Shown: positions 1-53,617 of the stretch, in pieces
Layout: every line of letters begins with the position of its first letter
How positions within the stretch are numbered: the stretch's first letter is position 1
NCBI GenBank assembly: GCA_947650285.1
Contig: CANTFL010001360.1
Span: 62,001 to 126,000 of the forward strand
From: Hyaloperonospora brassicae
Lineage: Eukaryota > Oomycota > Peronosporomycetes > Peronosporales > Peronosporaceae
DNA length: 64,000 nt
Reading direction: 5' to 3'
Notes under the pieces: generated by a model
Told to the model about the DNA's origin: nothing
The model's database searches: none
Seen by the model: only the letters and a program-made list of their open reading frames with translations
Program-made: the position numbers and the translations under genes

Positions 1-742
1 TCTCGACAGAGCCTTGAAGGCACGTCGTGTCGACGATGAGGAAATGAAACTCACATTTGCTCAAACCCACTTGGCAGGACGTGCCAAAACTTGGTCCCTA
101 GGACTCGAGAGTAGAGACCCACATGTGTTTAGGTCGCTATATGACTTCAAGTCCCGGCTCAGACAAACGTTTGAGCCGCCACGAGCTGAGTTCAGGGCTC
201 ATTCTGAGCTCCTGATACTCAAGCAGGGTAAGCGTCATGTGCACGCTTACGCACAACGTATACGACTCCTAGCGAGTAGTATAACTGCCAACCCAGTTCA
301 TGAACACACGTTAAATACGGTGTTCATGCAAGGGCTCGCGGAAGGGCCCGTCAGGAGCCACCTGTTCCGCCTTGAGCTGAATGCGCTTGGAGAAGCGATA
401 TCAGCCGCGGAACAGGAAGACTTTAGCATGAGACAGGCTCATGCTAGCTCAAACTCTTACCGTCCACCGAGACGACAAGAGATCGGAGGTCCAGAACCAA
501 TGGACCTCTGCTATGTAGAGAACGAGAGACCTCGCTCTTCGAACAACAAGCGATTGCAGAGGTGCAATCGCTATCAGAAGTTAGGGCACTACGCATACGA
601 GTGTAGTGCTCCACGCCCAGTACCAAACAGTACTGAGCGAAATGGACGTCCATTCGCCAAAAAGGGCAATGGGCGTGGGTCCAGCGCTGTTGCGAAGCCG
701 CAACAGAGAGACGGACCATCAAAAAATTGTCGGGGTCAGTAG
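1..742 (+). pseudogene. gag: Gag, 3' part (E1)
   Basis: The frame is open from the window start to a TAG at 740-742. It matches the Gag of copy E2 from about E2 residue 142 to the end, so the N-terminal part is missing. The retrotransposon Gag core (LTFAQTHLAGRAK, then FRSLYDFKSRLRQTF) is followed by a basic segment and a zinc knuckle. E2 has CNRC-x4-H-x4-C; here the second Cys is Tyr (CNRYQKLGHYAYEC), which should weaken zinc binding. Gag packages element RNA into cytoplasmic particles. The last codons overlap pol in the -1 frame. Confidence 0.9.
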
Positions 743-761
743 GGGCGGAGCGCCCTACTGA
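721..761 (+). promoter_or_regulatory. Predicted -1 ribosomal frameshift signal between gag and pol (E1)
   Basis: The gag frame reads TCA AAA AAT TGT, giving the slippery heptamer A AAA AAT at 721-727. After an 8-nt spacer (728-735), TCAGTAGGG (736-744) pairs perfectly with CCCTACTGA (753-761) across the loop GCGGAGCG. The gag stop TAG at 740-742 sits inside the stem. Pol continues in the -1 frame. The same heptamer, spacer length and stem are in copy E2. This is the standard architecture of a -1 frameshift site; that it works is inference. Confidence 0.8.
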
Positions 762-3700
762 TCCAGCAACCTCAATAGAATTTGCAAATCTCTTGACGAT
801 AGTTCCTCCAGATACAAAATCATTGTGTGTCTCTGCACCTGGTGATGACTTTTCGCTCATCACCTTGAAGCTGGAAGCGACAAATGATTTGTCGCTTCGT
901 GCCCTAGTAGACTGTGGGGCGTCGAAAAACTTTGTTCGTCGCCAGTCACTAGAGGGTCGTAGGCTCAAGTTCGTTGAGCGCAACATTCCCCTCACGAGGA
1001 TGACGGTGCGCCTTGCAACAGGCGCATCGATAACCGTTGAGAAACGTGTAGTAGGAATCCACTACACGTTGGAGGGCGAACAGTACGATGATGACTTCAT
1101 CGTACTAGATCTGGATGACAAATTTGATGTCATCCTGGGATTACCTTGGCTCAGAAAGTACAAGCCAAGAGTGAGCTGGAAGCATCGATCCGTGAAGATG
1201 CCTGCCGCTTGTTCATCAGATGGCCATCTGATGAACATCTTGGAGCGTCCACAAGCGTGTGGATGTTCTGCGAGTGAGTGCGATGGCCTCACTTGCGGTA
1301 CGGTCGTTAGCACGACTGCACAAGATCACAGTGTAGCTGATCACTACACTGTGGAGCAAGCTCCCGGCGGCTGTACAGAAGTACAGGCTGCGCCGAAGGT
1401 CCACCACTCGAATAAGTCGAGTGGACCGGGACATGGATGCATACCTAGTGGGCAGCATCTTAGACAGAAGAAACCTGTTGCCCCCAAAGGGCAACATGGA
1501 AATCCTAGGTCAACTGGAAAGTCGACCGTAGAGGATCGGTCCCTGACTGTGGTTGCACAGCCACAGTCAGAAGACGTCGAGGGAATAAGTCCTCACGTAC
1601 TCGAGGAAGGAATTCCTCAAGAGTCACTTTCTGAGGGATCAGGACCTCAGCAACCTGTGGAAAGAAGTTCCCAGGACGAAACCAAGACGTTGAACGTCTT
1701 GGTTAATGACGGATCAAGCGTAGGTGCTTATACGCTTGATCTGATTGTGCCTCCGAAGTTAACTTCGGAGACAACTCAGTTGCCAACGCTAGAACCGAAA
1801 CGGTTCTTGCGTGATCTGCGTATTGCCAAAGTCAAGCAGATCTGAATACTCGTCACAGAGGATGGGTATGTGGCCGATATTCGATCGGCAACAGTATTTG
1901 CTGAGAACGAACGGGTTCTTAGCAGCTCATCGATGGATGAAATGTCCTCGATGAGTAGACTCAAATTGAACGATACGCGTCCCAATCCTGTAAGTCACTT
2001 CAGGCAAATCCTTTGTATAAGGATTTGATCGAATTCGAGGATGTGCTCCCTGAATCCGTACCGTGCGAGTTGCCTAAGGACAAAGGCACTCGACACGAGA
2101 TCGAGCTCAGATCGGGCTCGAAGTATTGTGTCATGAAGCAGTGGCCACTGACTCGTGAACAAGTACTAGCGATCGACAAGTTCTTTGCCGATCGCTTAGC
2201 AGCGGGCCATGTGAGGGAATCAACATCCCCTCACAGCTCTCCGACCTTCTGTGTGCGAAAGGCCACAGGAAGGTGGCGGATAGTGTACGCATTCAACAAA
2301 TTGAATGCTGCAACGGTACCGGCTCAGACGCCGATACCGAGGAAGGACGTAATCATAGATGGTATGTCAAAGAGTACCATCTTTTCGTCCATGGATCTGA
2401 TGGATGGGTTCTATCAGATTCTCATGCGTGAACGGGATGTCCCGTTCACGGCAGTGAGTACCTTCAGCGGGATGCTGTGGGAGTGGCTAGTGATGCCACA
2501 GGGGCTGAGCAATGCCCCTGCAACATTCAACAGATGTGTCACAAATCTGTTGAGACCGGTGCGAGACTTCGCGCCGAGTTACTTCGACGATGTGTTCGTC
2601 CATAGCCGGGCTATGGACGGAAAGACGGACGTTGAAGTTCACAGAACTCACGTTCGTCAGGTTCTTCAACTTATGCGCAAGCATAAGTTGTACGACAACC
2701 TCAAGAAGTGTATATTTGCGGCAAGCGAAATATCACTTCTTGGGTGCATCGTCGGCAAATACGGCGTCCGCCCTGATCCTGAGAAGATCAAGGCGATCAC
2801 CGACTGGCCAGTGCCAGTCGATGTCAAGGGACTTCGTAAGTTGCTTGGCTTAGCGGCGTACTTGCACAAGTACTCGCGCAACTACGCCGATATAACTGTT
2901 CATCTTTCTTGCTTGCTCAAGAAAGATGTGAAGTGGTCATAGAGCGCTGACTGTCAGCGTTCCTTTAAAAGCATCAAGAAAAGCTTGATGCAATAGTACA
3001 TCTTGGCGATTGCAGATCAGGACAGACCTTTTCATGTGGTCTGTGACACCAGTGATTTTGCTATCGGCTGTGTGTTGATGCAGTATGACACAGACGGCGC
3101 AGAGCGCGTCGTCTGCTATCAATCGCGTCAGCAGCAACCATCTGAACGCAATTATTCAGTTCATGAAAAGGAACTACTTGCCATGAAGTATGCACTGGCT
3201 AAGTTCCAGGTCTATCTCTTGGGAGATAGACCGTTCATCGTCTGTACGGACCATGCGTCACTACGCACGGCCGTAAACAGTCCACACCTCTCGCAAACAA
3301 TGGCGAGGTGGCTGTCCTTCTTCGCGGAGTATAACTTCTCCGTGGAGTATAAACCAGTACGACTCGATGTCGTCGCTGATGCACTCTCGCGCCGGTCCGA
3401 TTTCGAGCCGGACGCACAATCCAACAGTGAGGATAAGCCCACTGTTGCGACACTGTCAGTCAGTGTTCCGTCGTCAAGCTTAATTGACGACGTACGAAAG
3501 GCATACGCAGTAGATAAGGATCTTCTGCGATTAATGGATCATCTGTTGAATCCATCCAGTAAATCATTGAAAGATTTACCGGCTTTGTACCGATCCTCCT
3601 CGGATCGGTATACGACACGCAACGGGTTGTTGTCTTATACAGCCGTAGACGGCGACACGCCTCGTGTCGTCGTCCTCGCTCATGATGATTTGCTTATACG

Positions 3701-5632
3701 CATCATGTTATGAATGACACGATGCGCCATCAGGTGGTCATCGTGGGAGAGAAAAGACTTACCTCACGGTGAGTCGTGAATTTTACTGGCCCCGCCAGTA
3801 TCAGCTTGTACGCAAGAACATACGTGCTTTCGAGGTTTGTCAACGGGTGAAGTTTAGTCCTTCATCCCGTGCGCCATTGCAGCCTCTGCCGGTCCCGGCA
3901 GAGTGTTGGGAGTCCGCGTCCATGGACTTTGTCTTCGGGTTTCCCGAAGACGCTCACAAGAATATTGGTATCTTGTGTTCGTTGACCGATATAGCAAGAT
4001 GGTGCATCTTGCTGCAGTGCCCGAGTCCATCACGGCACCCGGCTGTGCTCGTATCTTTCTCGACACGATCTTCCGACTCCACGGGTTGACCCGTGAACTC
4101 GTATCCGACTGTGACCCTCGATTCACGGCCTAATTTTGGCAAACTGTGTTCCGCACATTAGGAACAAGATTGAAGATGTCTACTTCTACCCATCCCGAAA
4201 CAGATGGTCAGACGGAACGTGCGAACCGTGTCCTCGAAGAGATCCTTTGAGGATATGTCCACCCGTTTTCGAGTTGGAGCGAATTCCTACCCATGGTGGA
4301 ATTTGCCATCAATAATTTGGTGCATGCTTCCACACAGCACACACCATTTTACGTGAATGGCCTAAGCCATCCACGTGTGCCCACCCTTCTAGAGTGTGAC
4401 TCTTGGATAAGGGGGGAGGGACTCGCTCGAGCAAAAACCGTTTTGCCTCTTGTTCATCACGTATCACCGCTAACACCGATACGGGTGATGCCGATGTCGA
4501 CGTTGTCGACATCGAGGAAATCGAGTTTAGCAGTAGCGATGACGCTGCTGCTACATCAGACAATGATGACGATGCTGGGATATTCAGCATCGTCAACGAT
4601 TATTCCAGCGAGGGCGAAGACAACCTCGCTGAAGAAGAGAAGAATCTCTTAGCAGTGCGCACGAAGCGCACTGAAAGACAAAACAAAGAGTCAGCAGAGA
4701 ACTTCCTGCTGACTCGAGAAGCGGTAGTCCGTTTCGTTCAGGACTCCATCGCAAATGCGGTGGACCTTCAGAAACGGAACTCAGACAAGAATGGAAGAGC
4801 AAATGTTCTTTCATTTAATGTTAATGACCTAGTACTACTGTCTACGGTAAACGTACCTGAACACGCAGTCACCAGTGTCGGCAGTAGTAAACTACTGCCG
4901 AAGTACATTGGGCCGTTTCGAGTGTTGCATCGCAAAGGCAATGCATACACGATCGAATTGCCACGTAAGATGCGCACGCATCCTACGTTTTACGTGGGGA
5001 GGCTTAGGCCGTACTGTCAGTACGAACCTTCTTCTTCCGGTGAAGATAGCCCCTACGTTCAAGAACATCCATCAAGTTCTTGCTTTCGCGCTCCAGACGA
5101 TCCGTCTGGTCGCGCAGATATGATACCTCGGAACTCAACCGAGATATCTACCCGCGAGCTGTCGCCAGCTCGCCAAATAGGAAGCAGACATCCCGCTCGA
5201 CCTGAAGCTGCGCTGTGGCATAATCGGCGCGATCTCTCGCCCGATCAGCCTCGTGATCCTTTAGGTTCTTCCGCACGGTATCAGTCAAAGCGTAGCGCCG
5301 GTCGCGCTCGTGCTTCAAGTCATCGCGCAATCGATGAATTGCGCGATCCAGCTCGTAAGGGTCGAGATGGTGAGCCGAATCATCTGGAGGAGGTATTTCC
5401 TCCTCCACCACATCCTTTGGTGGATGCTCACGGTGATCAACGCTTTCTAGTGGAGCGTATCTTGAATCACCGTGACGATTCAGGATCAAGGACGAGCTAC
5501 CTCGTCCAGTGGCGGGGGTATCCACCCTGTTGGACCAGCTGGGAGCCCCGCTCTCAGCTGTTGATGGATGTTGAAGGTCTCGTCCGCCAGTATGACGAGA
5601 CCCATCCGATGAGTCCTCGGGACCATCGGTAA
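727..5632 (+). pseudogene. pol: Pol: protease, RT, RNase H, integrase, chromodomain (E1), broken
   Basis: Segments can be placed by comparison with copy E2. Protease lies in 727-1845 (active-site LVDCGAS). RT lies in 2013-2942 (YFDD). RNase H starts at 3003 (CDTSDFAIG). The integrase zinc and core region lies in about 3720-4400. The integrase tail with GPF motif and a chromodomain lie in 4403-5632 ([12 protein letters not shown] to VRQYDETHP), open to TAA. Lesions include TGA at 1843-1845, TAG at 2940-2942, another stop near 2996, and frameshifts near 3713 and through the integrase core. The frame break at the G6 run 4411-4416 is shared with E2 and so is not a private lesion. The chromodomain frame is intact here but shifted in E2. 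Confidence 0.92.
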
Positions 5633-6607
5633 ACAGGCGCCCTAGGCGCTTGTAGACGGATTGCAAGTTTGCAATCGCGTCACGCATCTCCTCCGAGAGA
5701 TGTGCCCTTCCCCAGAGCGAACTTAGGGAACAAACGTCCCTATGTGCACGCTGCGAGTTGTCAACACAACTCGCACAAGGGTCTCCCCATGTGAGGCAAG
5801 GAATGCCTGCCTCACTCGACAAACAGTGCAACCGGTACCTGGCACCGGTTGGCGTTCGCTTTTCGAACCTGAGGCGTGTCGGCTCAAGTTTCTGAGCCAC
5901 CCTTCTCGTCCAAAATTCTTTACAGTTTGGACGAACGCGTTCCACGCAGCCAAAAGCGAGGCTTTGTCACGCTTTTGATTGCTGTTGTACCATCGATGTC
6001 TAAGGAAGACATCGAGATAAAAGTCTTCTTCAGCGCGAAAGTTGCTCGCGCTGGGAATCAAACCGTGAAGCTCAGTCGCATCGAATAAGGGTATTCGATG
6101 GTGTTGGCTTGTCTCGTGAGACAAGCCATTGATGAGCCGTTCGGGCAAGCGCCAGGGCTTGACCTCACCACGCTTCAATGTGGTACCTGTTTCGGTACCA
6201 CGGTTGTCATTTTGACGATGGGTTGCACCATCGTCAGGTCGCTCGTGCGAAGGAGCACGAGCTGACTTCGGTGATGAGCAAACATACTCATCATCAGATT
6301 CGTCATCACTGCCGAACAGACTATGTTGCAACTCACGAGTCCGTTCGTTCGGCAGTGGCCTTGGCGAACACTGAGGCGTCACCGGTGAGCTAGACGCCTC
6401 TGCAGCATTGCCCGAGTCAGACACGTCTGACTCGCCAGAGTAGATGACCTAAATGTCGGGGTCATCATGCGCACGCGGTGCTCTACCGCGTGCACCTGCA
6501 GCACCTCTTGCTGCAGGCGAAGAACGAGCAGCAGACGACGAATCGTCTGCCGCAGAAGCTGGCACAGGCACAGACTCTGTGTGCCTTGAGTCACCCCGCA
6601 TAGACAT
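5004..6607 (-). pseudogene. Antisense gene of the Gypsy family, E1 copy, broken
   Basis: Read on the strand opposite gag-pol, this matches the antisense ORF of E2 almost end to end. The start ATG at 6607 begins MSMRGDS as in E2. Three lesions break it: a stop near 6449, a one-base deletion near 5885-5895, and a TAG at about 5148 (GAG in E2). Beyond that TAG the frame stays open through the coiled-coil end ([14 protein letters not shown]) to the same TAA at 5004-5006 used by the E2 reading. Over about 90 codons shared with E2 I counted 10 codons with only silent differences and 11 with replacements, fewer replacements than drift alone would give. Function unknown. Confidence 0.75.
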
Positions 6608-6727
6608 GTTAGCTATGCGAGGTCGAGCGGAAAGTGAATGGAACGGACCCAACAAGTGCTCCCTGTCCCAATGGTGACCAACGGGTGGCCGCCGCTATTT
6701 TCGATAGTCACACGGTGACTATCAGTT

Positions 6728-6737
6728 AGGGGGGTGA
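6728..6737 (+). other. Polypurine tract (E1)
   Basis: AGGGGGGTGA lies immediately upstream of the 3' LTR start TGTAACGGGGC, the expected place for the plus-strand primer of reverse transcription. E2 has the same tract with one more G. Confidence 0.75.
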
Positions 6738-7129
6738 TGTAACGGGGCAGCCCGTTACATGGAATTGTCACTTTAAGAATAGTGACAGTACAGAATATGA
6801 AGTTGAATATTCTTTAAACAATATCACCGAAGCGGTGATATTGAAGGGTCGACCAAAGAGTCTGTTGATTGGTTGATATCTTGATGATATCAACCCACCA
6901 ATCGCCGCAAGACGCGCGCAATGAGTGGTGACGAGACGTCACCATACATTCAGTTATATTAGCATAATTAAGTTAAGTCAAACAGAGAGACAGTAGTTAA
7001 AAGACTTAATTATATTAATATAACATTTCTGCTTTTACCCTACCTACGCTTCCTCGCTTGCCTTGTGTACGTCTGTCGGGGCACCCGAAACCCTTGCATT
7101 AAGTTCACGCAAGGGTGTGCCCCGTTACA
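6738..7129 (+). repeat. 3' LTR of Gypsy copy E1
   Basis: The 392-bp LTR begins TGTAACGGGGC and ends GCCCCGTTACA, an 11-bp perfect terminal inverted repeat. It aligns along its length with the reverse complement of the E2 LTRs. It contains a string of perfect hairpins. One is CAATATCACCG/CGGTGATATTG (6819-6843), where E2 has an A-T pair instead of the loop-closing G-C. Another pair of arms is GGTTGATATC/GATATCAACC. It should carry promoter and polyadenylation signals, which I did not locate. Confidence 0.92.
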
Positions 7130-27811: not shown

Positions 27812-28761
27812 TGTAAGACGACATCTCAGCTCAGATGTTTTGGATACGAGTGCAACAAACGCATGCAGCGACTGACGATCCGGTCAAGTGCATGCTGATC
27901 ACCTCGAAAAGGAACTGGTACCTGCATTCCAGCTAATTAGTTGTCAATTTGCAGCATGTGAACAAGAAAGCGACAGTATCAGTTCGTGTGTATATATATT
28001 CGACGTCATCCACTTACTGCGAGATACTGACTCGACCTCAAGATCAGTTTTCTGCACGTGCTACAGCACTTGTCTATCCATGTAGATAAGGTCTCGGACC
28101 GGAGGCGGTGTTCTGCATGAAGGAGCGACTTGCAATCTCAACTTGACGGTCCTAAGACCTCGTGAGCCTTATCTTTGTAGCAGCAAAGAATGCAGCAAAA
28201 CACTTGCTGACACACCTTACTGAGCAGCTCGTACGCGTGCGCTTATCTCCACATAGCCACAGTCACTTGCTGTACTTGTGTCGCCGAAATGAACGTCTCA
28301 TGAGGAACATACGCGTAGCACGGACAATAGAGAGGCAGCGAGGAATGCAGTTGTGATCAACTGTCCTCGAATGAATCTTTGTATCGTGACGTTTACGCTT
28401 GACGGGGTTGTGTTCCAAGTCACGAAGTACCCAGTGTCGATCGATCATACAGAGACAAGGGCACAAAGCTGACCGTGCAGATCAAAGCAAAGTTCGAGAT
28501 GGCAACAACGTATAGTACTTCGCCTCGTATCAAAAAGCGTATCGGGTACGATGGTATTGATCTACTGTATACATGAACGACAGTTCCTACTTCCGTATCC
28601 ACGTTGTGGTGGCAGTGGTCTTTTCCTCACCAGAACGCGGCTGAAACTTCATCGTGAGAAAAATGTACACTTTAATCCTGCGTGTGATGGTCAGCGGCGT
28701 TTATACTTAGCTGGAGACGGTACGTTCGTGTGGAAATGTAGCCGTTTGCTCCACTCAAAGC

Positions 28762-29190
28762 TTAGCTGCTCTTCGTCTTCGTGATAAAGGTAGATGCGGG
28801 TTTGTCATCGGTATCCACTTGCTCGACGTTGGCCTCCTGTACCTCGACAGCGCCCTCCAATGTAGCGCCAACGTTCGTCTTCTCCTTCTCTACAACCGTC
28901 ATAGAATCGGCAACGGCTTCCATTTGCGCGATAAGCGTCACAGCTTCAGCCTCTCTAGCAACGTCAGACGCATCGGCAAAGACAGCTGTCTCGCCACTTG
29001 CAGCGGCTTCGGCAAGCTCAATTGAGTCAGTACCCGTCTCGGTCGCGACCTTAAATAAAAGACTTATTGAAGGAAGGGTGTGAATCGAAGGAAAAGGGGT
29101 GTGAATTTAGCAATTCCCTTAAATAATAGGTGACAAACTCACCACCCATTTCGTGCGTCTGTCGTTATTTATGACGTTTTTGGCGGACAT
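28762..29190 (-). CDS. Small acidic hypothetical protein, two exons
   Basis: ATG at 29188-29190 opens MSAKNVINNDRRTKWV (exon 29143-29190). A consensus donor GTGAGT (29142-29137) and an acceptor TTATTTAAG ending at 29050 bound a 93-bp phase-0 intron. Exon 2 (29049-28762) continues VATETGTDSIELAEAAASGE and ends TFITKTKSS before TAA. The product would be 111 residues, rich in Ala, Glu, Asp and Val, with no membrane segment. I do not recognise it. The intron holds one copy of an inverted repeat also present at 26924. Exon 1 could instead be a downstream exon of the neighbouring gene. Confidence 0.5.
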
Positions 29191-29495
29191 GATGGCCGAT
29201 GTCTGCGACTGCGCAGTGTGCTTTGTGCTTCGACCGAACCCGACATGCAGTATAATCGCTGGCATGACTCGATGAGAAAATAGTGGATTTCATACAAATT
29301 GGATGATCGGTGGATGTTACTAACTGCGATAATCTTGCTGCAAAAGGGGGACCATGATGGAATTTTTTACTCGATAATATCCATTGCTCGATATCTAAAA
29401 TGGACATGCAAATTGGGTAAATATCAGGAGAAGGGATCCCTATTTCCTCACAACTTAGCAAAATACGATAATTGAGAGATGTAGCAGCTACTTAC

Positions 29496-30440
29496 GGCGA
29501 AGTCTTGGAACCAGCTCGCACATAGCTGCACCGACACGGGGCAAAGCTGGAGGGGTACACTTTGTCTGAACATGTCGTATGCATCTAACGCTCGTTGCGG
29601 GCAAACTCCTCCGTCGAAGATTACGGACACCAACTCAATGGACAGCCGAGACCCGTTCTGCAGAAGGTGCGGTCCAAGTGCGCTGACGCAACTCGAGCAA
29701 ACTGGTGGAGAATGTTTGCTCGGTGCGCGTGCTTGAACGTGTCATCAAAATCGTACTATCCCTGACGAGAGCATGGCCAATCTGCTGTGCGTCCAGTGTG
29801 CATACCGACGCTCCGTCGCAAAGAGCGTTCAGGAAACAGCGCTGAAGTGGCGAGCGATTGGGTACGTGCAAGCACGACATGAGCGTCCTATCTCACCTGC
29901 CCAGGGCTCACGTACGTAGCCATGCGCCAGCTTAGAGGAAGGAACCGATCGATGCAAGAGACTGTCGCCTCGACAATGAGACGTAGGACCTCAACAAGAC
30001 GCTCTTCGGACTCGCTGCAAGACCACTGTCGTCGTCGCAATGTTTTGCTCTGTCTTTGGCACGTGAGTAACTTCTGCTCGACGTCTGCTTCGATAGCTTT
30101 CAGGCAGCAGATTCAACCGAACTGATGGCTCTCAACGCGTTGATGAGCATTTGGTAGCACATCGCGACGGGTTTTCTCAAGATCCTTTCTCGATGCAACA
30201 TGCTCACACCGACGGACACCGCATGTGAGCTGCAATGCCATTCGAGTTCCCTCGTAGTCAGCAACACCGTGACAACTACATCACAAGCTGAACGAACAAA
30301 CTCTTGTCAAGCTCATCTTCTTCACTCAGCACCAGCATTGCAATGGCGTGAGCCTTGCAACGTCGCGCTACTCGCCTTTCGAGCCAGGGCGGCAGGAAGG
30401 TGACGTTGATGCGTGCTTGCCCGTCTGCCAGGTAAAGATC
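29496..30440 (-). CDS. Unrecognised multi-exon gene, possibly decaying
   Basis: Three exons fit together well. About 30114-29897 reads EADVEQKLLTCQRQSKTLRR to TYVSPGQ. A 55-bp intron (29896-29842, GTGAGA to TTCAG) leads to 29841-29757 (CFLNALCDGASVCTLDAQQI). A second 55-bp intron (29756-29702, GTACGA to CACCAG) leads to 29701-29496 (LQNGSRLSIELVSVIFDGG), ending at a perfect donor GTAAGT. Phases agree at both introns. Upstream, frames with coding texture (LYLADGQARINVTFLPPWLE at about 30430-30300; MLHRERILRKPVAMCYQ at about 30200) join only with very short introns or one-base shifts. So the 5' half is either misread here or broken. A possible further exon runs to 29165. The product looks helical; no family recognised. 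Confidence 0.4.

Positions 30441-35206: not shown

Positions 35207-35210
<4 letters not shown>

Positions 35211-35269
<59 letters not shown>
35211..35269. repeat. (GA)n microsatellite, 59 bases
   Basis: An uninterrupted GA tract, the longest in the window, upstream of the membrane protein gene and downstream of the PDZ gene. Confidence 0.97.
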
Positions 35270-35272
<3 letters not shown>

Positions 35273-45638: not shown

Positions 45639-46027
45639 TGTACGGGGCACACCCTTGCGTAACTTAACGCAAGGGATTTGGGTGCCCCGACGGACGTACA
45701 CGTGGCGAGCGAGGAAGCGTAGGTAGGGTAAAAGTAGAACTGTTATATTAATAAATTAAGTCTTTAAACTACTGTCTCTTCGTTTGACTTAATTCAATCA
45801 TACTAATATAACTGCATGTATGGTGACGTCTCGTCACCACTCATTGCGCGCGTCTTGCGGCGATTGGTGGGTTGATATCATCACGATATCAACCAATGAA
45901 CAGACCCTTTGGTCGACCCTTCAATATCACCACTTTGGTGATATTGTTTAAAGAATATCCATCTTTATATTCTTTATTGTCACTTTCCTTAAAGTGACAA
46001 TTTCATGTAACGGGCTGCCCCGTTACA
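45639..46027 (-). repeat. 3' LTR of Gypsy E2
   Basis: 389 bp. In + reading it runs from TGTACGGGGC (one A lost) to GCCCCGTTACA. It is a string of perfect hairpins: CCCTTGCGT/ACGCAAGGG at 45652-45675, then GGTGACG/CGTCACC, TTGATATC/GATATCAA, CAATATCACCA/TGGTGATATTG, TTGTCACTTT/AAAGTGACAA and TGTAACGGG/CCCGTTACA. Confidence 0.95.
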
Positions 46028-46041
46028 TCACCCCCCCTTAA
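46028..46041 (-). other. Polypurine tract (E2)
   Basis: On the - strand TTAAGGGGGGGTGA abuts the start of the 3' LTR, the normal site of plus-strand priming. Confidence 0.8.
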
Positions 46042-46126
46042 CTGATAGTCACCGTGTGACTATCAAAATATGGAGGCCACCCGTTGGCCACCATTGGGAC
46101 AGGGAGCACTTGTTTGGTCCGTTCCA

Positions 46127-46134
46127 CTCACTTT
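46127..46134 (+). promoter_or_regulatory. Initiator-like motif upstream of the antisense ORF
   Basis: CTCACTTT fits the initiator pattern YTCANTYY common at oomycete transcription starts and lies 23 nt before the antisense ATG, a rather short leader. E1 keeps TTCACTTT at the matching place. It lies about 100 nt outside the LTR. Short motifs arise easily by chance, so this is weak. Confidence 0.35.
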
Positions 46135-46156
46135 CCGCTTGACCTCGCATAGTTAA

Positions 46157-47632
46157 ATGTCTATGCGAGGTGACTCAAGACCCACACAGCCTGGTGCTGT
46201 GCAAGCCTCTGCGGCAGACGCTTCGTCGTCTGCCGCCCCTTCTTCGCCTGCAGCAACAGGTGCTGCAGGTGCACGCGGTATCACGCCGCGTGCGCACGAT
46301 GACCCCGATGTGGAGGTCATCTACTATGGCGAGTCAGACGTGTCTGACTCGGGCAATGCTCCAGAGGCGTCTCGCTCACCGGCGACGCCTCAGTATTCGC
46401 CAAGACCACTGCCGAACGAACGGACTCGTGATTTGCATCACAGTCTGTTCGGCAGTGATGATGATGATGACCAGGGTGGTGAGTTCTATTCTTCACCACC
46501 GCCGGCTCGTGCGTCTTCGCACGAGCGTGATGACGATGGCGCGAGCCGTCGTCAATCTGGGAGCCGTGGTACCAACAAGGGTACCACTGTGAAGCGTGAT
46601 GAGTTGAAGCCGTGGCGTTTGCCCGAACAACTCATCAATAGCCTGTCTCACGAGACAGGCCAACACCATCGAATACCCTTATTCGATGCAACCGAGCTTC
46701 ACGGCTTGAGTTCCAGCGCGAAGAACTTTCGCGCTCAAGAAGAATTTTATCTCGATGTCTTTCTTAGACATCGATGGTACAATAGCAACCAAAAGCGTGA
46801 CAAAACATCGCTTTTGGCTGCGTGGAACGCGTTCGTCCAAAACGTCAAGAATTTTGGACGAGATGGGTGGCTCAAGAAACTTGAGGCAACACGCCTCAGG
46901 TTCGAACGGCGAACGCCAACCGGTGCTAGGTACCGGTTGCATTGTTTATCTAGTGAGGCAGGCATTCCTTGCCTTACATGGGGAGACCCTTGTGCGAGTT
47001 GTGTTGACAACTCGCAGCGTGCACATAGGGATGTGTACTCCCTAAATTCGCCCTGGGGAAGGGCACACATCTCGGCTGAGATGCGTGACGCGATTGCAAA
47101 CTTGCAATCCGTCTACAAGCGCCTAGGGCGCGTGTTTACCGATGGGCCACAGGACTCATCGGATGGGTCTCGTCATACTGGCGGACGAGACCTTCAACAT
47201 CCATCAACAGCTGAGAGCGGGGCTCCCAGCTGTTCCAAGAGGGTGGATACCCCCGCCACTGGACGAGGTAGCTCGTCCTTGATCCTGAATCGTCACGGTG
47301 ATTCAAGATACGCTCCACTAGAAAGCGTTGATCACCGTGAGCATCCACCAAAGGATGTGGTGGAGGAGGAAAGACCTCCTCCAGAACCCCAGGCCCACCA
47401 TCTCGACCCTTACGAGATGGATCGCGCAATCGATGAATTGCGCGATGACCTGAAGCACGAGCGCGACCGACGCTACGCTTTGACCGACACCGTGCGGAAG
47501 AACCGCAAGGGTCACGAGGCTGATCGGGCGAGATATCGCGCCGATTATGCCACGGCGCAGCTTCAGGTCGAGCGGGATGTCCGCTCCTTTTCGGCGAGCT
47601 GGCGACAGCTCGCGGGGAGATATCTCGGTTGA
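46157..47632 (+). CDS. Antisense gene of the Gypsy family (491 residues; ancestral end at 47763)
   Basis: This frame lies opposite gag-pol, between pol and the 3' LTR, and starts at ATG 46157 (MSMRGDSR). The N-terminal third is Ser/Pro/Asp-rich with an acidic run (SDDDDDQGG). A conserved middle holds [17 protein letters not shown] and [14 protein letters not shown] Cys cluster follows (C-x8-C-x6-C-x2-C, ending GDPCASC), a possible metal site. The C-terminus is charged and helical ([18 protein letters not shown]), probably a coiled coil. A one-base deletion in 47581-47593 relative to E1 shifts the end. In the other frame coiled-coil sequence ([20 protein letters not shown]) continues to TAA 47761-47763. 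No known family recognised; it may be regulatory or nucleic-acid binding, but this is not shown. Confidence 0.8.
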
Positions 47633-48367
47633 GTTCCGAGGTATCATATCTGCGCGACCAGACGGATCGTCTGGAGCGCGAACGCAAGAACTTGATGGAT
47701 GTTCTTGAACGTGGGGGCTATCTTCATCGGAAGAAGAAGGCTCGTACTGACAGTACGACCTAAGCCTCCCCACGTAAAACGTAGGATGCGTGCGCATCCT
47801 ACGTGGCAATTCGAGTGTGTATGCATTGCCCTTGCGATGCAACACTCGAAATGGCCCAATGTATTTCGGCAGTAGTTTACTACTGCCGACACTAGTGACT
47901 GCATGTCCAGGTAGGTTTACCGTTGACAGTAGTACTAGGTCATTAACCTTAAATGAAAGAACATTTGCTCTTCCATTCTTGTCTGCGTTCCGTTTCTGAC
48001 GGTCCACCGCATTTGCGATGGAGTCCTGAACGAAACGGACTACCGCTTCTCGAGTCAGCAGGAAGTTCTCTGCTGACTCTTTGTTTTGTCTAGCAGTGCG
48101 CTTCGTGCGCACTGCTAAGAGATTGCTCTCTTCTTCAGCGAGGTTGTCTTCTTCCTCGCTGGCATAATCGTTGGCGATGCTGAATATACCAGCATCGTCA
48201 TCATCATCCGAATCAATAATAGCGTCTTCGCTATTATTGAGATGATCTTCTTCATCGATGTCGACTTGATCGACATCGGCATCATACGTGACGACGTTTG
48301 CGTCGACACGTGATGAGCAAGAGCCAAAACGGTTTTTGCTCGAGCGAGTCCCTCCCCCCTTATCCAA
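47136..48367 (-). CDS. pol: Integrase tail and chromodomain (E2), -1 frame, shifted once
   Basis: This continues pol after the G6 run (C6 at 48354-48359 on the + strand). The frame holds an acidic insert, then the integrase C-terminal GPF block ([27 protein letters not shown]). It runs into a spacer that is overlapped in antisense by the gene at 46157. A one-base deletion in 47581-47593 then moves the reading to another frame, where the chromodomain lies ([20 protein letters not shown] to [10 protein letters not shown], ending 47136). Chromodomains of this element class bind modified histone tails and steer integration. In E1 all of this is one frame, so the E2 chromodomain is probably lost. 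Confidence 0.8.
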
Positions 48368-51300
48368 GAGTCACACTCTAGAAGGGTGGGCACACGTGGA
48401 TGGCGTAGGCCATTCACGTAAAACGGTGTGTGCTGTGTTGAAGCATGCACCGAATTATTGATGGCGAATTCCACCATGGGTAGGAATTCGCTCCAACTCG
48501 GAAACGAGTGGACATATCCTCGAAGAATCTCTTCGAGGACACGGTTCGCACGTTCCGTCTGACCATCTGTTTCTGGATGGTCAGAAGTGGACATCTTCAA
48601 TCGTGTTCCGAGAGTACGGAACACGGTTTGCCAAAATTCCGCCGTGAACCGAGGGTCACGGTCGGATACGAGTTCACGGGGTAACCCGTGGAGTCTAAAG
48701 ACCGTGTCTAGAAAGACACGAGCACAACCTTGAGCCTTGATTGACTCAGGGACAGCAGCAAGATGGACCATCTTGCTGAATCGGTCCACAAACACAAGAA
48801 TACCATTATTCTTGTGAGCGTCTTCGGGAAACCCGAAGACGAAGTCCATTGAAACGGACTGCCAGCACTCTGTCGGAACAGGCAGAGGCTGCAATGGCGC
48901 ACGGGATGAAGGACTAGGCTTCACCCGTTGACATACTTCGCAAGCACGGATGTACTTGCGAACAAACTGATACTGGCGGGGCCAGTAAAAGTCGCGACTT
49001 ACCGTGAGGTAAGTCTTTTCTCTACCACGATGGCCGCTTGTTGGGGCATCGTGACACTCATACATGATGCGCAATCGCAAATCATGATGAGCGGGTACGA
49101 CGACACGAGGCGTGTCGTCGGCAACAGCTGTATAATACAGCAATCCGTTGCGTGTACTATACCGATCCGATGAGGATCGGTACAAAGCCGGTAAATCCCT
49201 CATGGATTTACTGGATGGATTCACCAGATGATCCATCAATCGCAGAAGATCCTTATCTTCCGCGTATGCCTTTCGTACGTCGTCAAGTAAACTTGACGAC
49301 GGGACACTGACTGACAGTGTCGCAACAGTGGGCTTGTCCTCACTGTTGGATTGCGCGTCCGGCTCGAAATCGGGCCGGCGCGAAAGAGCATCCGCGACGA
49401 CATTGAGTCGTCCCGGTTTATACTCCACGGAGAAGTTATACTCCGCGAAGAAAGACAGCCACCTCGCCATTCTTTGCGAGAGGTGCGGGCTGTTTACGGC
49501 CGTGCGTAATGACGCATGGTCCGTGTAGACAACAAACGGTCTATCTCCCAAGAGATAGACGCGAAACTTAGCCAGTGCGTATTTCATGGCAAGGAGTTCC
49601 TTGTCATGCACTGGGTAATTACGCTCAGCTGCTTGCAGCTGACGCGACTGATAACAGATGACGCGCTCCGCGCCATCTGCATCGAACTGCATTAACGCAC
49701 AGCCGATTGCGAAATCGCTGGCGTCACAGACCACATGAAATGGTCTGTCCTGATCTGCAATCGCCAAGATCGGCGATTGCATCAAGCTTTGCTTGATACC
49801 TTCAAAGGAACGCTGGCACTCAGCGTTCCATGACCACTTGACATTTTTCTTGAGCAAGCAAGAAAGATGAACAGTCATCTCGGCGTAGTTGCGCGAGTAC
49901 TTGTGCAAGTACGCCGCAAGACCAAGGAACTTCCTTAGTCTCTTGACATCGACTGGCACTGGCCAGTCGGTGATCGCCTTGATCTTTTCGGGATCAGGGC
50001 GTACGCCGTGTTTACCCACGATGCACCCAAGAAGTGGTATTTCGCTAGCCGCGAATATACACTTCTTGAGGTTGGCGTACAACTTATGCTTGCGCATAAG
50101 TTGAAGAACCTGACGAACGTGAGTTCTGTGAACTTCAACGTCCGTCTTCCCGTCCATAGCCCGGCTATGGACGAACACATCGTCGAAGTAACTCGGTGCG
50201 AAGTCTCGCACCGGTCTCAACAGATTTGTTACACATCTGTTGAATGTTGCAGGGGCATTACTCAGCCCCTGTGGCATCACTAGCCACTCCCACAGCATCC
50301 CGCTGGGGGTACTCACTGCCGTGAACGGGACGTCCCGTTCACGCATCAGGATCTGATAGAATCCATCCATCAGATCCATGGACGAAAAGATGGTACTCTT
50401 TGACATACCATCTATGATTACGTCCTTCCTCGGTATCGGCGTCTGAGCCGGTACCGTTGCAGCATTCAACTTGTTGAATGCGTGCACTATCCGCCACCCT
50501 CCTGTGGCCTTTCGCACACAGAAGGTCGGAGAGCTGTGAGGGGATGTTGATTCCCTCACATGGCCCGCTGCTAAGCGATCGGCAAAGAACTTGTCGATCG
50601 CTAGTACTTGTTCACGAGGCAGTGGCCACTGCTTCATGACACAGTACTTCGAGCCCGGTTTGAGCTCGATCTCGTGTCGAGTGCCTTTGTCCTTAGGCAA
50701 CTCGCAAGGTACGGATTCAGGGAACACATCCCTGAATTCGATCAAATCCTTATACAAAGGATTTGCCTGAAGTGACTCCCAGGATTGGGACGCGTATCGC
50801 TCAATCCGAGTCTTCTCATCGAGGACACTTTCGTCCATCGATGAGCTGCTGAGAACCCGTTCGTTCTCAGCAAATACTGTTGCCGACCGAATGTCGGTCA
50901 CATACTCGTCCTCTGTGACGAGTATGCAGATCTGCTTGACTTTGCCACTACGCAGATCACGCAAGAACCGTTTCGGTTCTAGCGTTGGCAATTGAGTTAT
51001 CTCCGAAGTCAACTTCGGAGGCACAATCAGATCAAGCGTATAAGCGCCTACGCTTGATCCGTCATTAACCAAGACGTTCAACGTCTCGGTTTCTTCCTGG
51101 GAACTTGCTTCCACAGGTTGCTGAGGGCCTAATCCCTCAGCAAGCGACTCTTGAGGAATTCCTTCCTCAAGTACGTGGGGACTTATTCCCTCGACGTCTT
51201 CCGACTGTGGCTGTGCAACCACAGTCAGGAACCGATCCTCTACGGTCGACTCTCCAGTCGACCTAGGATTTTCATGTTGCCCCTTGGGGGCAACAGATTT

Positions 51301-52050
51301 CTTTCTTCTAAGATGCTGCCCGCTAGGCATGCATCCATGTCCCGGTCCACTCGACTTATTCGAGTGGTGGACCTTCGGCGCAGCCTGTACTTCTGTACAG
51401 CCGCCGGGAGCTTGCTCCACAGTGTAGTGATCAACTACACTGTGATCTTGTGCAGTCGTGCTAACGACCGTACCGCAAGTGAGGCCATCGCACTCACTCG
51501 CAGAACATCCACACGCTTGTGGACGCTCCAAGATGTTCATCAGATGGCCATCTGATGAACAAGCAGCAGGCATCTTCACGGATCGATGCTGCCAGCTCAC
51601 CCTTGGCTCGTATTTTCTGAGCCAAGGTAATCCCAGGATGACATCAAATTTGTCATCCAGATCTAGTACGATGAAATCATCATCGTACTGCTCGCCCTCT
51701 AACGTGTAGTGGATTCCTACTACACGTTTCTCAACGGTTATCGATGCGCCTGTTGCAAGGCGCACCGTCATCCTTGTGAGGGGAGTGTCGCGCTCAACGA
51801 ACTTGAGCCTACGACCCTCTAGTGACTGGCGACGAACAAAGTTGTTCGACGCCCCACAGTCTACTAGGGCACGAAGCGACAAATCATTTGTCGCTTCCAA
51901 CTTCAAGGTGATGAGCGAAACGTCATCACCAGGTGCAGAGACACACAATGATTGTGTATCTGGAGCAACTTTCGTCAAGAGATTTGCAAATTCTCTCGAG
52001 GTTGCTGGATCAGTAGGGCGCTCCGCCCCTACTGACCCCGACCATTTTTT
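48115..52050 (-). CDS. pol: Pol polyprotein: protease, RT, RNase H, integrase core (E2)
   Basis: Expressed by -1 frameshift from gag at 52044-52050. Numbering from the internal ATG at 51978: protease active site D40 (LVDCGAS); RT from about 410, with YFDD at 597-600; RNase H with D752 (CDASD), E794, D820 and D863; integrase zinc region with C1013 and C1016; integrase core D1045, D1106 and E1142, exactly DD35E. All catalytic residues are present and no stop interrupts them. Useful sequence ends near residue 1209, at the G6 run. The last 78 codons of this frame to 48115 have no meaning, and the true protein continues in the -1 frame. The product copies and integrates the element. Confidence 0.93.
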   Translation of the reverse strand, partial: KKWSGSVGAERPTDPATSREFANLLTKVAPDTQSLCVSAPGDDVSLITLKLEATNDLSLRALVDCGASNNFVRRQSLEGRRLKFVERDTPLTRMTVRLATGASITVEKRVVGIHYTLEGEQYDDDFIVLDLDDKFDVILGLPWLRKYEPRVSWQHRSVKMPAACSSDGHLMNILERPQACGCSASECDGLTCGTVVSTTAQDHSVVDHYTVEQAPGGCTEVQAAPKVHHSNKSSGPGHGCMPSGQHLRRKKSVAPKGQHENPRSTGESTVEDRFLTVVAQPQSEDVEGISPHVLEEGIPQESLAEGLGPQQPVEASSQEETETLNVLVNDGSSVGAYTLDLIVPPKLTSEITQLPTLEPKRFLRDLRSGKVKQICILVTEDEYVTDIRSATVFAENERVLSSSSMDESVLDEKTRIERYASQSWESLQANPLYKDLIEFRDVFPESVPCELPKDKGTRHEIELKPGSKYCVMKQWPLPREQVLAIDKFFADRLAAGHVRESTSPHSSPTFCVRKATGGWRIVHAFNKLNAATVPAQTPIPRKDVIIDGMSKSTIFSSMDLMDGFYQILMRERDVPFTAVSTPSGMLWEWLVMPQGLSNAPATFNRCVTNLLRPVRDFAPSYFDDVFVHSRAMDGKTDVEVHRTHVRQVLQLMRKHKLYANLKKCIFAASEIPLLGCIVGKHGVRPDPEKIKAITDWPVPVDVKRLRKFLGLAAYLHKYSRNYAEMTVHLSCLLKKNVKWSWNAECQRSFEGIKQSLMQSPILAIADQDRPFHVVCDASDFAIGCALMQFDADGAERVICYQSRQLQAAERNYPVHDKELLAMKYALAKFRVYLLGDRPFVVYTDHASLRTAVNSPHLSQRMARWLSFFAEYNFSVEYKPGRLNVVADALSRRPDFEPDAQSNSEDKPTVATLSVSVPSSSLLDDVRKAYAEDKDLLRLMDHLVNPSSKSMRDLPALYRSSSDRYSTRNGLLYYTAVADDTPRVVVPAHHDLRLRIMYECHDAPTSGHRGREKTYLTVSRDFYWPRQYQFVRKYIRACEVCQRVKPSPSSRAPLQPLPVPTECWQSVSMDFVFGFPEDAHKNNGILVFVDRFSKMVHLAAVPESIKAQGCARVFLDTVFRLHGLPRELVSDRDPRFTAEFWQTVFRTLGTRLKMSTSDHPETDGQTERANRVLEEILRGYVHSFPSWSEFLPMVEFAINNSVHASTQHTPFYVNGLRHPRVPTLLECDSWIRGEGLARAKTVLALAHHVSTQTSSRMMPMSIKSTSMKKIISIIAKTLLLIRMMMTMLVYSASPTIMPARKKTTSLKKRAIS
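52010..52050 (-). promoter_or_regulatory. Predicted -1 frameshift signal between gag and pol (E2)
   Basis: On the - strand the heptamer A AAA AAT (52050-52044), an 8-nt spacer and a 9-bp stem TCAGTAGGG/CCCTACTGA (52035-52027 with 52018-52010) are the same as in E1. The gag TAG lies within the stem. Confidence 0.82.
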
Positions 52051-53183
52051 GATGGTCCGTCTCGCTGTTGCGGTTTCGCAACAGCGCTGGACCCACGCCC
52101 ATTGCCCTTTCTGGCGAATGGTCGTCCATTTCGCTCAGTACTGTTTGGTACTGGGCGTGGAGCACTACACTCGTATGCGTAGTGCCCTAACTTCTGACAG
52201 CGATTGCACCTCTGCAATCGCTTGTTGTTTGTAGAGCGAGGTCTCTCGCTCTCAACATAGCAGAGGTCCATTGGTTCTGACCCTCCGATCTCTTGTCGTC
52301 TCGGTGGACGGTAAGAGTTTGAGCTAGCATGAGCCTGTCTCATGCTAAAGTCTTCCTGTTCCGCGGCTGATATCGCTTCTTCAAGCGTATTCAGCTCAAG
52401 GCGGAACAGGTGGCTCCTGACGGGCCCTTCTGCGAGCCCTTGCATGAACACCGTAATCAACGTGTGTTCATGAACTGGGTTGGCAGTTATACTACTCGCA
52501 AGGAGTCGTATATGTTGTGCGTAAGCGTGCACATCACGCTTACCCTGCTTGAGTTTCAGGAGCTCTGAACGAGCCCTGAACTCAGCACGTGGCGGCTCAA
52601 ACGTTTGTCTGAGCCGGGACTTGAAGTCATCTAGCGACCTAAACACGTTTGGGTCGCTACTCTCGAGTCCCAGGGACCAAGTTTTGGCACGCCCTGCCAA
52701 GTGGGTCTGAGCAAATGTGAGTTTCATTTGCTCATCTTCGACGCGACGAGCCCTTAGGGCTCTGTCGAGTTCGACAAACCATAGTAACAGGGAGTCCTCC
52801 GGGACTCCACTGGACTTGGAGATGTCGACTTTCATCACTTCGGGACGACGCGCATGCGCCGTCCCGCCCACAGCAGCATGGAATTGCTGCTGTCTCAACA
52901 GCTCCGTCTGTTGAGCACCGAGTTCCCTCAACTGCTCGGCCTGTTGAGAGCCTTGCTGGTGAAGCAAGGCTACTTTCTCCCTCTCGAGAGCAAGTTCATT
53001 GTGAATGACTTTGGCGATAGCAGCATGTTGTTGGTCTCTGTCTAGAGACTCCAACATGGTGCTGACGACGAGTTCGCCTACGATAGAACTCACATGTTCT
53101 ACCGCACCCCATTCGATGTCACTCAAATGGGTAAACCCTTCACGCGTGGCGTGAAAGGTGTCTTCTTCATCCAACATGTTCAT
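52029..53183 (-). CDS. gag: Gag (E2)
   Basis: ATG at 53183, about 44 nt after the 5' LTR, opens MNMLDEEDTFHATREGF; a second ATG follows two codons later. The protein has 384 residues. Residues 50-100 are a Gln/Glu/Leu-rich coiled coil, and 145-285 the retrotransposon Gag core (MKLTFAQTHLAGRAKTWSLG, HAYAQHIRLLASSI). At 326-339 there is a zinc knuckle CNRCQKLGHYAYEC (C-x2-C-x4-H-x4-C). The tail is basic and Asn/Gly/Arg-rich. It forms particles and packages RNA. It is uninterrupted, unlike the E1 copy. Confidence 0.95.
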   Translation of the reverse strand: MNMLDEEDTFHATREGFTHLSDIEWGAVEHVSSIVGELVVSTMLESLDRDQQHAAIAKVIHNELALEREKVALLHQQGSQQAEQLRELGAQQTELLRQQQFHAAVGGTAHARRPEVMKVDISKSSGVPEDSLLLWFVELDRALRARRVEDEQMKLTFAQTHLAGRAKTWSLGLESSDPNVFRSLDDFKSRLRQTFEPPRAEFRARSELLKLKQGKRDVHAYAQHIRLLASSITANPVHEHTLITVFMQGLAEGPVRSHLFRLELNTLEEAISAAEQEDFSMRQAHASSNSYRPPRRQEIGGSEPMDLCYVESERPRSTNNKRLQRCNRCQKLGHYAYECSAPRPVPNSTERNGRPFARKGNGRGSSAVAKPQQRDGPSKNGRGQ

Positions 53184-53206
53184 GTTGGATGATGTGGTCC
53201 TTGGAA

Positions 53207-53225
53207 GGACTACAAAGTGCTACCA
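53207..53225 (-). other. Primer-binding site (E2)
   Basis: Two bases after the 5' LTR the - strand reads TGGTAGCACTTTG. TGG would pair with the CCA end of a tRNA. Only the first nine or so bases are likely to pair; I cannot name the tRNA. Confidence 0.55.
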
Positions 53226-53227
53226 GG

Positions 53228-53617
53228 TGTAACGGGGCACACCCTTGCGTAACTTAACGCAAGGGATTTGGGTGCCCCGACGGACGTACACGTGGCGAGC
53301 GAGGAAGCGTAGGTAGGGTAAAAGTAGAACTGTTATATTAATAAATTAAGTCTTTAAACTACTGTCTCTTCGTTTGACTTAATTCAATCATACTAATATA
53401 ACTGCATGTATGGTGACGTCTCGTCACCACTCATTGCGCGCGTCTTGCGGCGATTGGTGGGTTGATATCATCACGATATCAACCAATGAACAGACCCTTT
53501 GGTCGACCCTTCAATATCACCACTTTGGTGATATTGTTTAAAGAATATCCATCTTTATATTCTTTATTGTCACTTTCCTTAAAGTGACAATTTCATGTAA
53601 CGGGCTGCCCCGTTACA
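53228..53617 (-). repeat. 5' LTR of Gypsy E2
   Basis: 390 bp, TGTAACGGGGC to GCCCCGTTACA in + reading. It is identical to the other LTR apart from one base. The hairpin CAATATCACCA/TGGTGATATTG lies at 53512-53536. Confidence 0.96.

What the first reader, a model, noticed from the sequence alone, without database searches (positions are those of the whole stretch)
1..7129. The Gypsy family is saturated with short perfect inverted repeats in LTR and coding sequence
Seen: perfect hairpins and palindromes with 7-13 bp arms recur about every 50 nt where I listed them (14 in 1200-1950), in gag, pol, the antisense gene and the LTRs. For 8-bp arms with loops up to 20 nt, chance would give about one per 3 kb. 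Host genes and the Copia element nearby do not look like this. Possible causes: selection for a compact RNA genome, protection or packaging, or a copying mechanism such as template switching that perfects near-palindromes.
Basis: seen in the sequence. Interest (0 to 1): 0.93.

Follow-up and report, generated by a model that had tools for sequence, protein, structure and literature searches.

The report
Retrotransposon tiled with tiny selected hairpins
A mobile DNA element in a mildew-like microbe is packed along its whole length with short self-folding hairpins, roughly fifty times more than the surrounding host DNA, and changes that break them spread less well, so selection seems to be keeping the element's RNA or DNA folded on itself.

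Summary
Perfect hairpins (arm >=8, loop <=20) number 74 in E1 (shuffles 1.7) and 108 in E2 (2.1); the rest of the window is at chance for such arms. Synonymous-codon shuffles do not reproduce it. E2 stems are mostly 8-12 bp, loops mostly 2-10 nt, span mostly 20-30 nt. All 54 family loci first fetched carry it; two Copia loci do not. A sister Gypsy family (Pol 51% identical) has its own set of another standard size: 5-bp stems, loops 3-5, span 13-15, at unrelated positions. E2's folding-energy excess is 47-49% on either strand; a coronavirus paper quotes 23.4% as the highest for vertebrate RNA viruses. Private mutations strike arms and other sites alike, but synonymous variants present in >=3 copies are depleted in arms (29:88 vs 166:180, p=8e-6); shifted controls show nothing. 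So selection keeps the hairpins. In E2 G-U counts as a mismatch; in L061 the wobble evidence is mixed. Best reading: GORS-like self-folding, probably a shield from RNA silencing (inferred). New variant of a known kind.

The parts
1..7129 (+). E1: older Gypsy copy (lacks the part matching the first ~760 nt of E2), 74 hairpins with arm >=8
45642..53531 (-). E2: young full Gypsy copy, 108 hairpins with arm >=8; LTRs identical
45642..45941 (-). E2 3' LTR (300 nt), 3 hairpins with arm >=8
53232..53531 (-). E2 5' LTR (300 nt), 3 hairpins with arm >=8
52029..53183 (-). gag ORF, 384 aa (Retrotrans_gag; zinc knuckle below Pfam's cut-off); 11 hairpins arm >=8 vs 0.75 in synonymous shuffles
48115..51978 (-). 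pol ORF, 1287 aa (protease, RT, RNase H, integrase); 55 hairpins arm >=8 vs 1.7
47136..47687 (-). ORF with chromodomain-like sequence (motif recognised from recall; the Pfam run covered the overlapping ORF 47321-48367 and gave SH3_Tf2-1)
46157..47632 (+). antisense ORF, 491 aa, no Pfam match, five database relatives at 48-85% identity; 23 hairpins arm >=8 vs 0.8
1210..1237 (.). example: 14-bp arm, loop 0 (E1); E2 has a 14-bp, loop-0 hairpin at 51534-51561
1680..1704 (.). example: 12-bp arm, loop 1 (E1)
1712..1741 (.). example: 11-bp arm, loop 8 (E1)
50320..50343 (.). example: 12-bp arm, loop 0 in E2; of 11 other copies shown 8 have a non-complementary base at the tip, 1 has the other tip base changed, 2 are as E2
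49278..49301 (.). example: 11-bp arm, loop 2 in E2; in an older clade three adjacent bases differ, the perfect stem is shorter, and one pair is compensated in 2 of 3 copies
45870..45894 (.). example in 3' LTR: 10-bp arm, loop 5

Best explanation
The element family has evolved, largely through synonymous freedom, dense short hairpins along its whole length, and purifying selection keeps them in lineages that go on transposing (shown from sequence). What is selected is self-folding of single strands; in E2 it is as strong for the antisense as for the sense. The likely purpose (inferred) is that element RNAs of both senses fold on themselves locally, so that they neither anneal to each other nor stay open to small RNAs; 8-12 bp stems give strong folding while staying below the length that I recall Dicer-type enzymes needing. 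[quoted passage not shown] Roughly 0.9 for the first part (selection for self-folding), 0.35-0.45 for the silencing-shield function.
For: Excess of about 45-50-fold over dinucleotide shuffles and 15 to 33-fold over synonymous shuffles in three ORFs. Over 2667 pol sites in up to 59 copies, private mutations fall on arms and non-arms alike (276 on 864 arm sites, 621 on 1803 others), while variants in >=3 copies are depleted in arms (56 vs 240; OR 0.53, p=7e-5); for synonymous variants 29:88 vs 166:180, OR 0.36, p=8.5e-6; non-synonymous 27:188 vs 73:440, no difference; six shifted control sets OR 0.84-1.08 for synonymous variants. Compensated changes are 7 of 56 spread arm variants vs 6 of 276 private ones, p=0.002. 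In the sister family five-bp stems have loop 3 at 45 vs 4.3, with loops 0 and 1 at expectation and loop 2 at 9 vs 3.8, which marks single-strand hairpins, not duplex palindromes. MFED equal on both strands in E2 or nearly so (46.5, 48.7%); hairpins in ORFs of both strands; both families have an ORF antisense to their 3' part. In Phytophthora infestans small RNAs of both orientations cover two Gypsy elements, and LTR retrotransposons carry 25/26-nt small RNAs (passages of PMC3522703, PMC3804510). Structured viral RNAs triggered weaker innate responses in published tests, though a re-stabilised artificial sequence did not (passages of PMC3950689).
Against: No RNA data here: neither folding nor silencing was measured. 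Fixed differences between an old clade (3 copies) and the main clade are not depleted in arms (20 of 976 arm sites vs 40 of 1691, p=0.68 against private variants; arms there were the union of both clades' hairpins, so gains count too). In L061 G-U exceeds A-C at stem ends in the sense (excess 24.1 vs 2.2 inner, 31.5 vs 17.0 outer), as sense-RNA selection would predict, although its antisense folds better. Stable hairpins could also feed small-RNA production. Only 27% of 25-nt windows of E2 self-fold at <= -6 kcal/mol (6% in Copia, 7% in a host stretch), so a shield would be partial. The two Copia loci examined have no hairpins, though Copia is present in the genome in number. In P. infestans the authors suspect silencing routes other than dsRNA-Dicer-Argonaute, and report 35- and 40-nt small RNAs on blots for Gypsy Pi-1a (PMC3522703 passages).
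Confidence: 0.45

Rival explanations
1. Sense-RNA function only: compaction, nuclease resistance or Gag recognition of the genomic RNA in virus-like particles, with a hairpin size preferred by each family's own Gag.
For: Family-specific hairpin size (about 9 bp/24 nt in E2, 5 bp/14 nt in L061); in E2 outer span varies less than arms and loops paired at random (sd 2.96 vs 3.96, none of 5000 permutations as tight), though not in L061 (p=0.34); whole element covered, LTRs included. In L061 G-U exceeds A-C at stem ends.
Against: No sense bias in folding: MFED 46.5 vs 48.7% (E2) and 15.7 vs 19.0% (L061), sense vs antisense. In the E2 family spread arm variants are G-U 13 and A-C 14, with spread/private ratios 0.20 and 0.18, like other mismatches 0.17. 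Codon constraints also shape the span.
Confidence: 0.25
2. The hairpins act in single-stranded minus-strand cDNA during reverse transcription (DNA level), which would make G-T and A-C about equally bad.
For: Wobble parity in the E2 family; loops of 3 nt and more; antisense folds better in L061 (p=0.02), not in E2 or E1 (p=0.995, 0.958).
Against: Strand parity fits equally well with both RNAs being selected; G-U excess at stem ends in L061; no DNA-level measurement was made.
Confidence: 0.15
3. A copying mechanism (template switching or quasi-palindrome correction) perfects near-palindromes; no selection is needed.
For: Perfect stems with sharp ends; one cluster of adjacent changes at a stem (E2 4231-4254).
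Against: Arm variants that spread are mostly uncompensated (49 of 56), whereas correction would revert or compensate them; two Copia loci of the same genome lack hairpins; hairpins in E2 gag and pol avoid the codon register with least freedom (A 37, B 37, C 14, p=0.002), though a filter on protein could do that too, and L061 pol shows no such bias (27, 26, 30).
Confidence: 0.08
4. Hairpins serve the host or feed silencing (precursors of small RNAs), and persist by drift or hitchhiking.
For: Hairpin transcripts can be small-RNA sources in other organisms (recalled).
Against: Depletion of spread arm variants implies benefit to the copies that spread; stems are shorter than the Dicer substrates that I recall.
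Confidence: 0.05

Closest known systems
[quoted passage not shown] PMC7642675, PMC3950689, abstract or passages seen)
   Same: Hundreds of short-range stem-loops through coding sequence; raised MFED; positions mostly not conserved between relatives; lower diversity at paired sites.
   Different: An LTR retrotransposon, not an RNA virus; MFED about 47% against a quoted maximum of 23.4% (their shuffling algorithm differs from mine); stems perfect and of a standard size; as strong on the antisense in E2; another standard size in a sister family.
Ty3/Gypsy LTR retrotransposons, e.g. yeast Ty3, whose RNA was mapped by SHAPE (PMC11381356, passages seen)
   Same: Gag, then protease-RT-RNase H-integrase, between LTRs.
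   Different: The passages report 14 well-folded regions in Ty3 RNA in vivo, not a continuous tiling of perfect hairpins; here there is also an antisense ORF.
Gypsy Pi-1a and 'Albatross' of Phytophthora infestans (PMC3522703, passages seen)
   Same: Abundant Gypsy elements of an oomycete; small RNAs of both orientations along them.
   Different: No hairpin tiling described in the passages seen; their DNA could not be tested here.
Quasi-palindrome correction by template switching; inserted palindromic elements such as those of Rickettsia (both recalled)
   Same: Perfect inverted repeats inside genes.
   Different: Spread arm variants stay mostly uncompensated; arms of the 137 E2 hairpins are 134 different sequences, the 3 repeats being the two LTRs.

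Membership tests
GORS | Folding energy of whole genome well above sequence-order shuffles (MFED >3%, threshold as in PMC3950689) | tested here: met
   E2 46.5% sense, 48.7% antisense, 25 windows each; L061 15.7 and 19.0%, 24 windows each; host stretches -0.8 and 0.8%, Copia 2.2%
GORS | Many local stem-loops throughout coding sequence | tested here: met
   129 non-overlapping hairpins (arm >=7, loop <=20) in the first 7590 nt of E2, i.e. without the 3' LTR
GORS | Pairings not conserved in position between relatives | tested here: met
   E2 vs L061 pol: 6 of 68 mapped centres coincide within 1.5 nt, background 3.9+-1.9
GORS | Carried by the genome of a positive-strand RNA virus | tested here: not met
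   LTR retrotransposon integrated in DNA; I therefore call it GORS-like, not GORS
GORS | RNA structure demonstrated in the molecule | not testable with these tools
   needs SHAPE/DMS
Ty3/Gypsy LTR retrotransposon | LTRs, gag, pol with integrase after RT-RNase H | tested here: met
Chromovirus clade | Chromodomain at the integrase C terminus | tested here: inconclusive
   Motif seen by eye in ORF 47136-47687; Pfam run on the overlapping ORF gave only SH3_Tf2-1; many related database proteins list PF00385
Template-switch perfected palindromes | Mutations in one arm are copied into the other | tested here: not met
   7 of 56 spread arm variants compensated
Inserted palindromic repeat elements | Copies of one palindromic sequence inserted in genes | tested here: not met
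   137 E2 hairpins have 134 distinct arms, the 3 repeats lying in the two LTRs; 106 of 106 distinct in E1

The most novel reading that the evidence does not exclude
Each Gypsy family in this host has tuned its hairpins to the size of the small RNAs that attack it: span 23-26 nt in E2 to fit the 25/26-nt class, 13-15 nt in L061 to sit inside 21-nt ones, so that guides cut from the element, on either strand, fold on themselves and fail. The element's synonymous sites would then be a record of an arms race with RNA silencing.
Probability: 0.1. Interest if true: 0.95.

Novelty: new variant of a known kind. Interest (0 to 1): 0.82.

Why it matters
It would be an extreme case of nucleic-acid self-structure under selection, in a class of element for which my searches listed no such report. 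Two sister families with different hairpin sizes in one genome, many copies at graded divergence and hairpin-free Copia loci make a natural experiment on why genomes evolve pervasive structure, a question open since GORS was described in RNA viruses.

Tried and rejected
Duplex palindromes (protein-binding dyads, cruciforms): rejected because in L061 five-bp stems with loops 0 and 1 are at expectation while loop 3 is tenfold up. Dinucleotide composition: rejected by shuffles. Codon usage: rejected by synonymous shuffles. Mutational cold spot in arms: rejected, private mutation rates nearly equal (in the smaller young set the ratio was 0.75, p=0.18). Position-specific signals: rejected, positions unrelated between families. 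Known RNA families: no Rfam match at gathering threshold in window 45600-53600.

Simple divergence of arms against E2 (arms 4.3%, loops 12.2%, outside 8.7% for E1) was not used as proof, because hairpins chosen in E2 bias it. In one search A-C outnumbered G-U among young-copy cells (137 vs 66); these are cells, not events. Variants present in exactly two copies were left out of the tests (synonymous: 35 arm, 83 non-arm; non-synonymous: 29, 80); L056 was dropped because L062 is the same locus. Double changes on true pairs were complementary in 18 of 31 against 5 of 20, 9 of 26, 10 of 31, 5 of 26, 5 of 18 and 9 of 23 on slid pairs. Codon-register bias is seen in E2 gag and pol, not in L061 pol nor clearly in the antisense ORF (7, 11, 7) or the chromodomain-like ORF (2, 3, 3). 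Amino-acid identity to L061 is slightly lower in arm codons (0.467, n=317; partly arm 0.477, n=176) than elsewhere (0.529, n=728). Some shared variants may come from segmental duplication rather than transposition.

Relatives outside this genome: viral contigs twice and genome contigs once gave none. A third Gypsy family was sought by profile and protein search and not reached.
Full report
What was checked. E1 (window 1-7129) and E2 (45642-53531, minus strand) are two copies of one Gypsy family; E2 has identical 300-nt LTRs, an intact gag (384 aa), a pol of 1287 aa and a 491-aa ORF on the other strand near its 3' end. The host is probably an oomycete: residues 400-900 of Pol are 92% identical to a Peronospora effusa protein, and the other organisms named among the 120 listed hits are Peronospora, Phytophthora and Globisporangium. 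The genome held is 100.56 Mb in 898 contigs.

The excess. Perfect hairpins with arms >=8 and loops <=20 number 74 in E1 and 108 in E2 against 1.7 and 2.1 in dinucleotide shuffles; the other three stretches of the window give 3, 7 and 2 against 7.0, 5.3 and 3.0 (for arms >=7: 30, 35 and 14 against 28.4, 21.2 and 12.0, the middle one above all 30 shuffles). Synonymous-codon shuffles give 1.7 for pol (55 seen), 0.75 for gag (11), 0.8 for the antisense ORF (23); four host ORFs give 1, 1, 1 and 0. Of 60 loci fetched are of this family (one is E2 itself) and carry 6.7-14.8 hairpins per kb; the other six, of a sister family, carry 0.3-0.6 of this size. Five further fetched family loci (one, L062, overlapping an earlier one) have 7.7-11.0 per kb and two Copia loci none.

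Anatomy. In E2 the excess lies almost wholly at loops of 0-15 nt (101 against 2.0; at loops 20-23, 4 against 0.1); the commonest loops are 4 and 5 nt and stems end sharply. Of 137 hairpins with arms >=7 only 4 overlap the next. Among 103 non-overlapping hairpins with arms >=8 the outer span is 24.3+-3.0 nt, tighter than random pairing of the same arms and loops (3.96; none of 5000 permutations), and longer arms are poorer in G+C (rho -0.27, p=0.005). Hairpins in gag and pol favour the two codon registers in which third positions can pair with first or second ones (37, 37, 14; p=0.002), so they were built largely from synonymous freedom; L061 pol shows no such bias. Span is biased modulo 3 in gag and pol (p=0.007) but also outside them (p=0.02), where the antisense ORF lies.

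A sister family with another size. L061, whose Pol is 51% identical over 1221 aligned residues, has few long hairpins, but in 7240 nt of its element five-bp stems with loops 3, 4 and 5 stand at 45, 29 and 21 against 4.3, 4.0 and 4.0 expected, while loops 0, 1 and 2 stand at 4, 6 and 9 against 5.1, 5.8 and 3.8. In pol the loop-3 class is 32 against 5.0 in synonymous shuffles (max 13 of 100). The loop minimum of 3 is that of a folded single strand. Only 6 of 68 mapped E2 hairpin centres coincide with L061 ones within 1.5 nt, background 3.9+-1.9: the two sets look independent.

Strength. With 300-nt windows MFED is 46.5% (E2 sense), 48.7% (E2 antisense), 15.7% and 19.0% (L061 sense, antisense), -0.8% and 0.8% (host stretches) and 2.2% (Copia, 11 windows). 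Passages of PMC7642675 give 7.5-10.7% for HCV, around 15% for SARS-CoV-2 and 23.4% as the highest recorded in vertebrate RNA viruses.

Selection. In up to 59 copies over 2667 sites of pol, private variants fall on arms and other sites at similar rates (per 1000 sites: 319 in arms, 345 outside, 340 in loops), but those in six or more copies stand at 20 in arms, 48 outside and 48 in loops. Split by effect, synonymous variants show arm 29 spread (>=3 copies) to 88 private against 166 to 180 elsewhere (OR 0.36, p=8.5e-6), non-synonymous ones no difference (27:188, 73:440); six sets of arms shifted by 18-45 nt give OR 0.84-1.08 for synonymous variants. In 30 young copies the result is the same: variants in >=4 copies 4 in arms, 53 elsewhere (p=1.2e-5), private ones 33 and 95 (p=0.18). 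Compensated changes are enriched among spread arm variants (7 of 56 against 6 of 276, p=0.002). Against this, fixed differences between one old clade and the rest are not depleted in arms (20 of 976 against 40 of 1691); there the arm set was the union of both clades' hairpins, so hairpin gains count as differences.

Which strand. In the E2 family G-U is no better than A-C: spread/private 13/66 and 14/78, other mismatches 22/126, Watson-Crick 7/6; in E2 stems with one non-Watson-Crick pair the mid-stem excess is 45.5 for G-U and 36.7 for A-C. MFED does not differ between strands in E2 (p=0.995) or E1 (p=0.958). L061 is mixed: its antisense folds better (p=0.02), yet at stem ends G-U exceeds A-C in the sense (excess 24.1 against 2.2 inner, 31.5 against 17.0 outer; mid-stem neither). 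For E2 this speaks against selection on the sense RNA alone with ordinary wobble tolerance, and for either both RNAs, or single-stranded DNA, or a need for perfect helices.

Mechanism. Shown: dense self-folding sequence, maintained by selection in transposing lineages, equal on both strands in E2, family-specific in size. Inferred: that it shields element RNA. In P. infestans small RNAs of both orientations cover two Gypsy elements (PMC3522703 passages), and LTR retrotransposons carry 25/26-nt ones (PMC3804510 passages); the former paper also reports 32-nt small RNAs, 35- and 40-nt bands for Gypsy Pi-1a, and suspects routes other than dsRNA-Dicer-Argonaute, which does not help the size-tuning reading. 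Both families here encode an ORF antisense to their 3' part, so they may make RNA of both senses. RNA folded locally should anneal slowly to its complement and be a poor target; stems of 8-12 bp are shorter than Dicer substrates (both recalled). Rivals are packaging or compaction of the sense RNA, and structure of minus-strand cDNA. A copying artefact is disfavoured as the maintaining force, though it may have helped to start some stems (one cluster of adjacent changes).

Limits. Tests treat neighbouring windows and related copies as independent. Novelty: searches listed no report of hairpin tiling in an LTR retrotransposon; only open-licence papers are held, and I judged those lists by title and opening of abstract, apart from the papers whose passages are cited.

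Noticed in passing
window 46157-47632 (+): Antisense ORF of 491 aa over the 3' part of E2; no Pfam match, five database relatives at 48-85% identity, all of source 'ena' with no organism named, 65-71% in an old copy, L062. Looks like a real conserved protein of unknown role.
   Followed up: partly
L061 2338-3648 (+): The sister family also has a long antisense ORF (437 codons stop to stop) over its 3' part; tblastn with the E2 antisense protein found nothing in L061 at E<=1.
   Followed up: partly
L061, 119 mini-hairpins: Closing pairs are strongly pyrimidine-purine (C-G 51, T-A 40, G-C 16, A-T 12) and loops are T-rich (0.324); in 69 E2 hairpins the lean is the other way (G-C 25, A-T 17, C-G 15, T-A 12) with A-rich loops (0.316). 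Unexplained.
   Followed up: no
window 28000-45600: Arms >=6 with loops 9-11 number 28 against 10.6 expected, scattered, and arms >=7 number 35 against 21.2; possibly chance among many classes.
   Followed up: no
window 60104-63802 (-): Host ORF of 1232 aa with many ankyrin repeats and a TIR domain.
   Followed up: no
window 31217-32140 (+): Host ORF with an RWP-RK domain.
   Followed up: no
window 39996-40146 and 45302-45452: 151-nt direct repeat, 81% identical, the second copy just outside E2.
   Followed up: no
L007 and L009 (G000 C824): Two family copies lie close together in opposite orientation, a possible inverted duplication.
   Followed up: no
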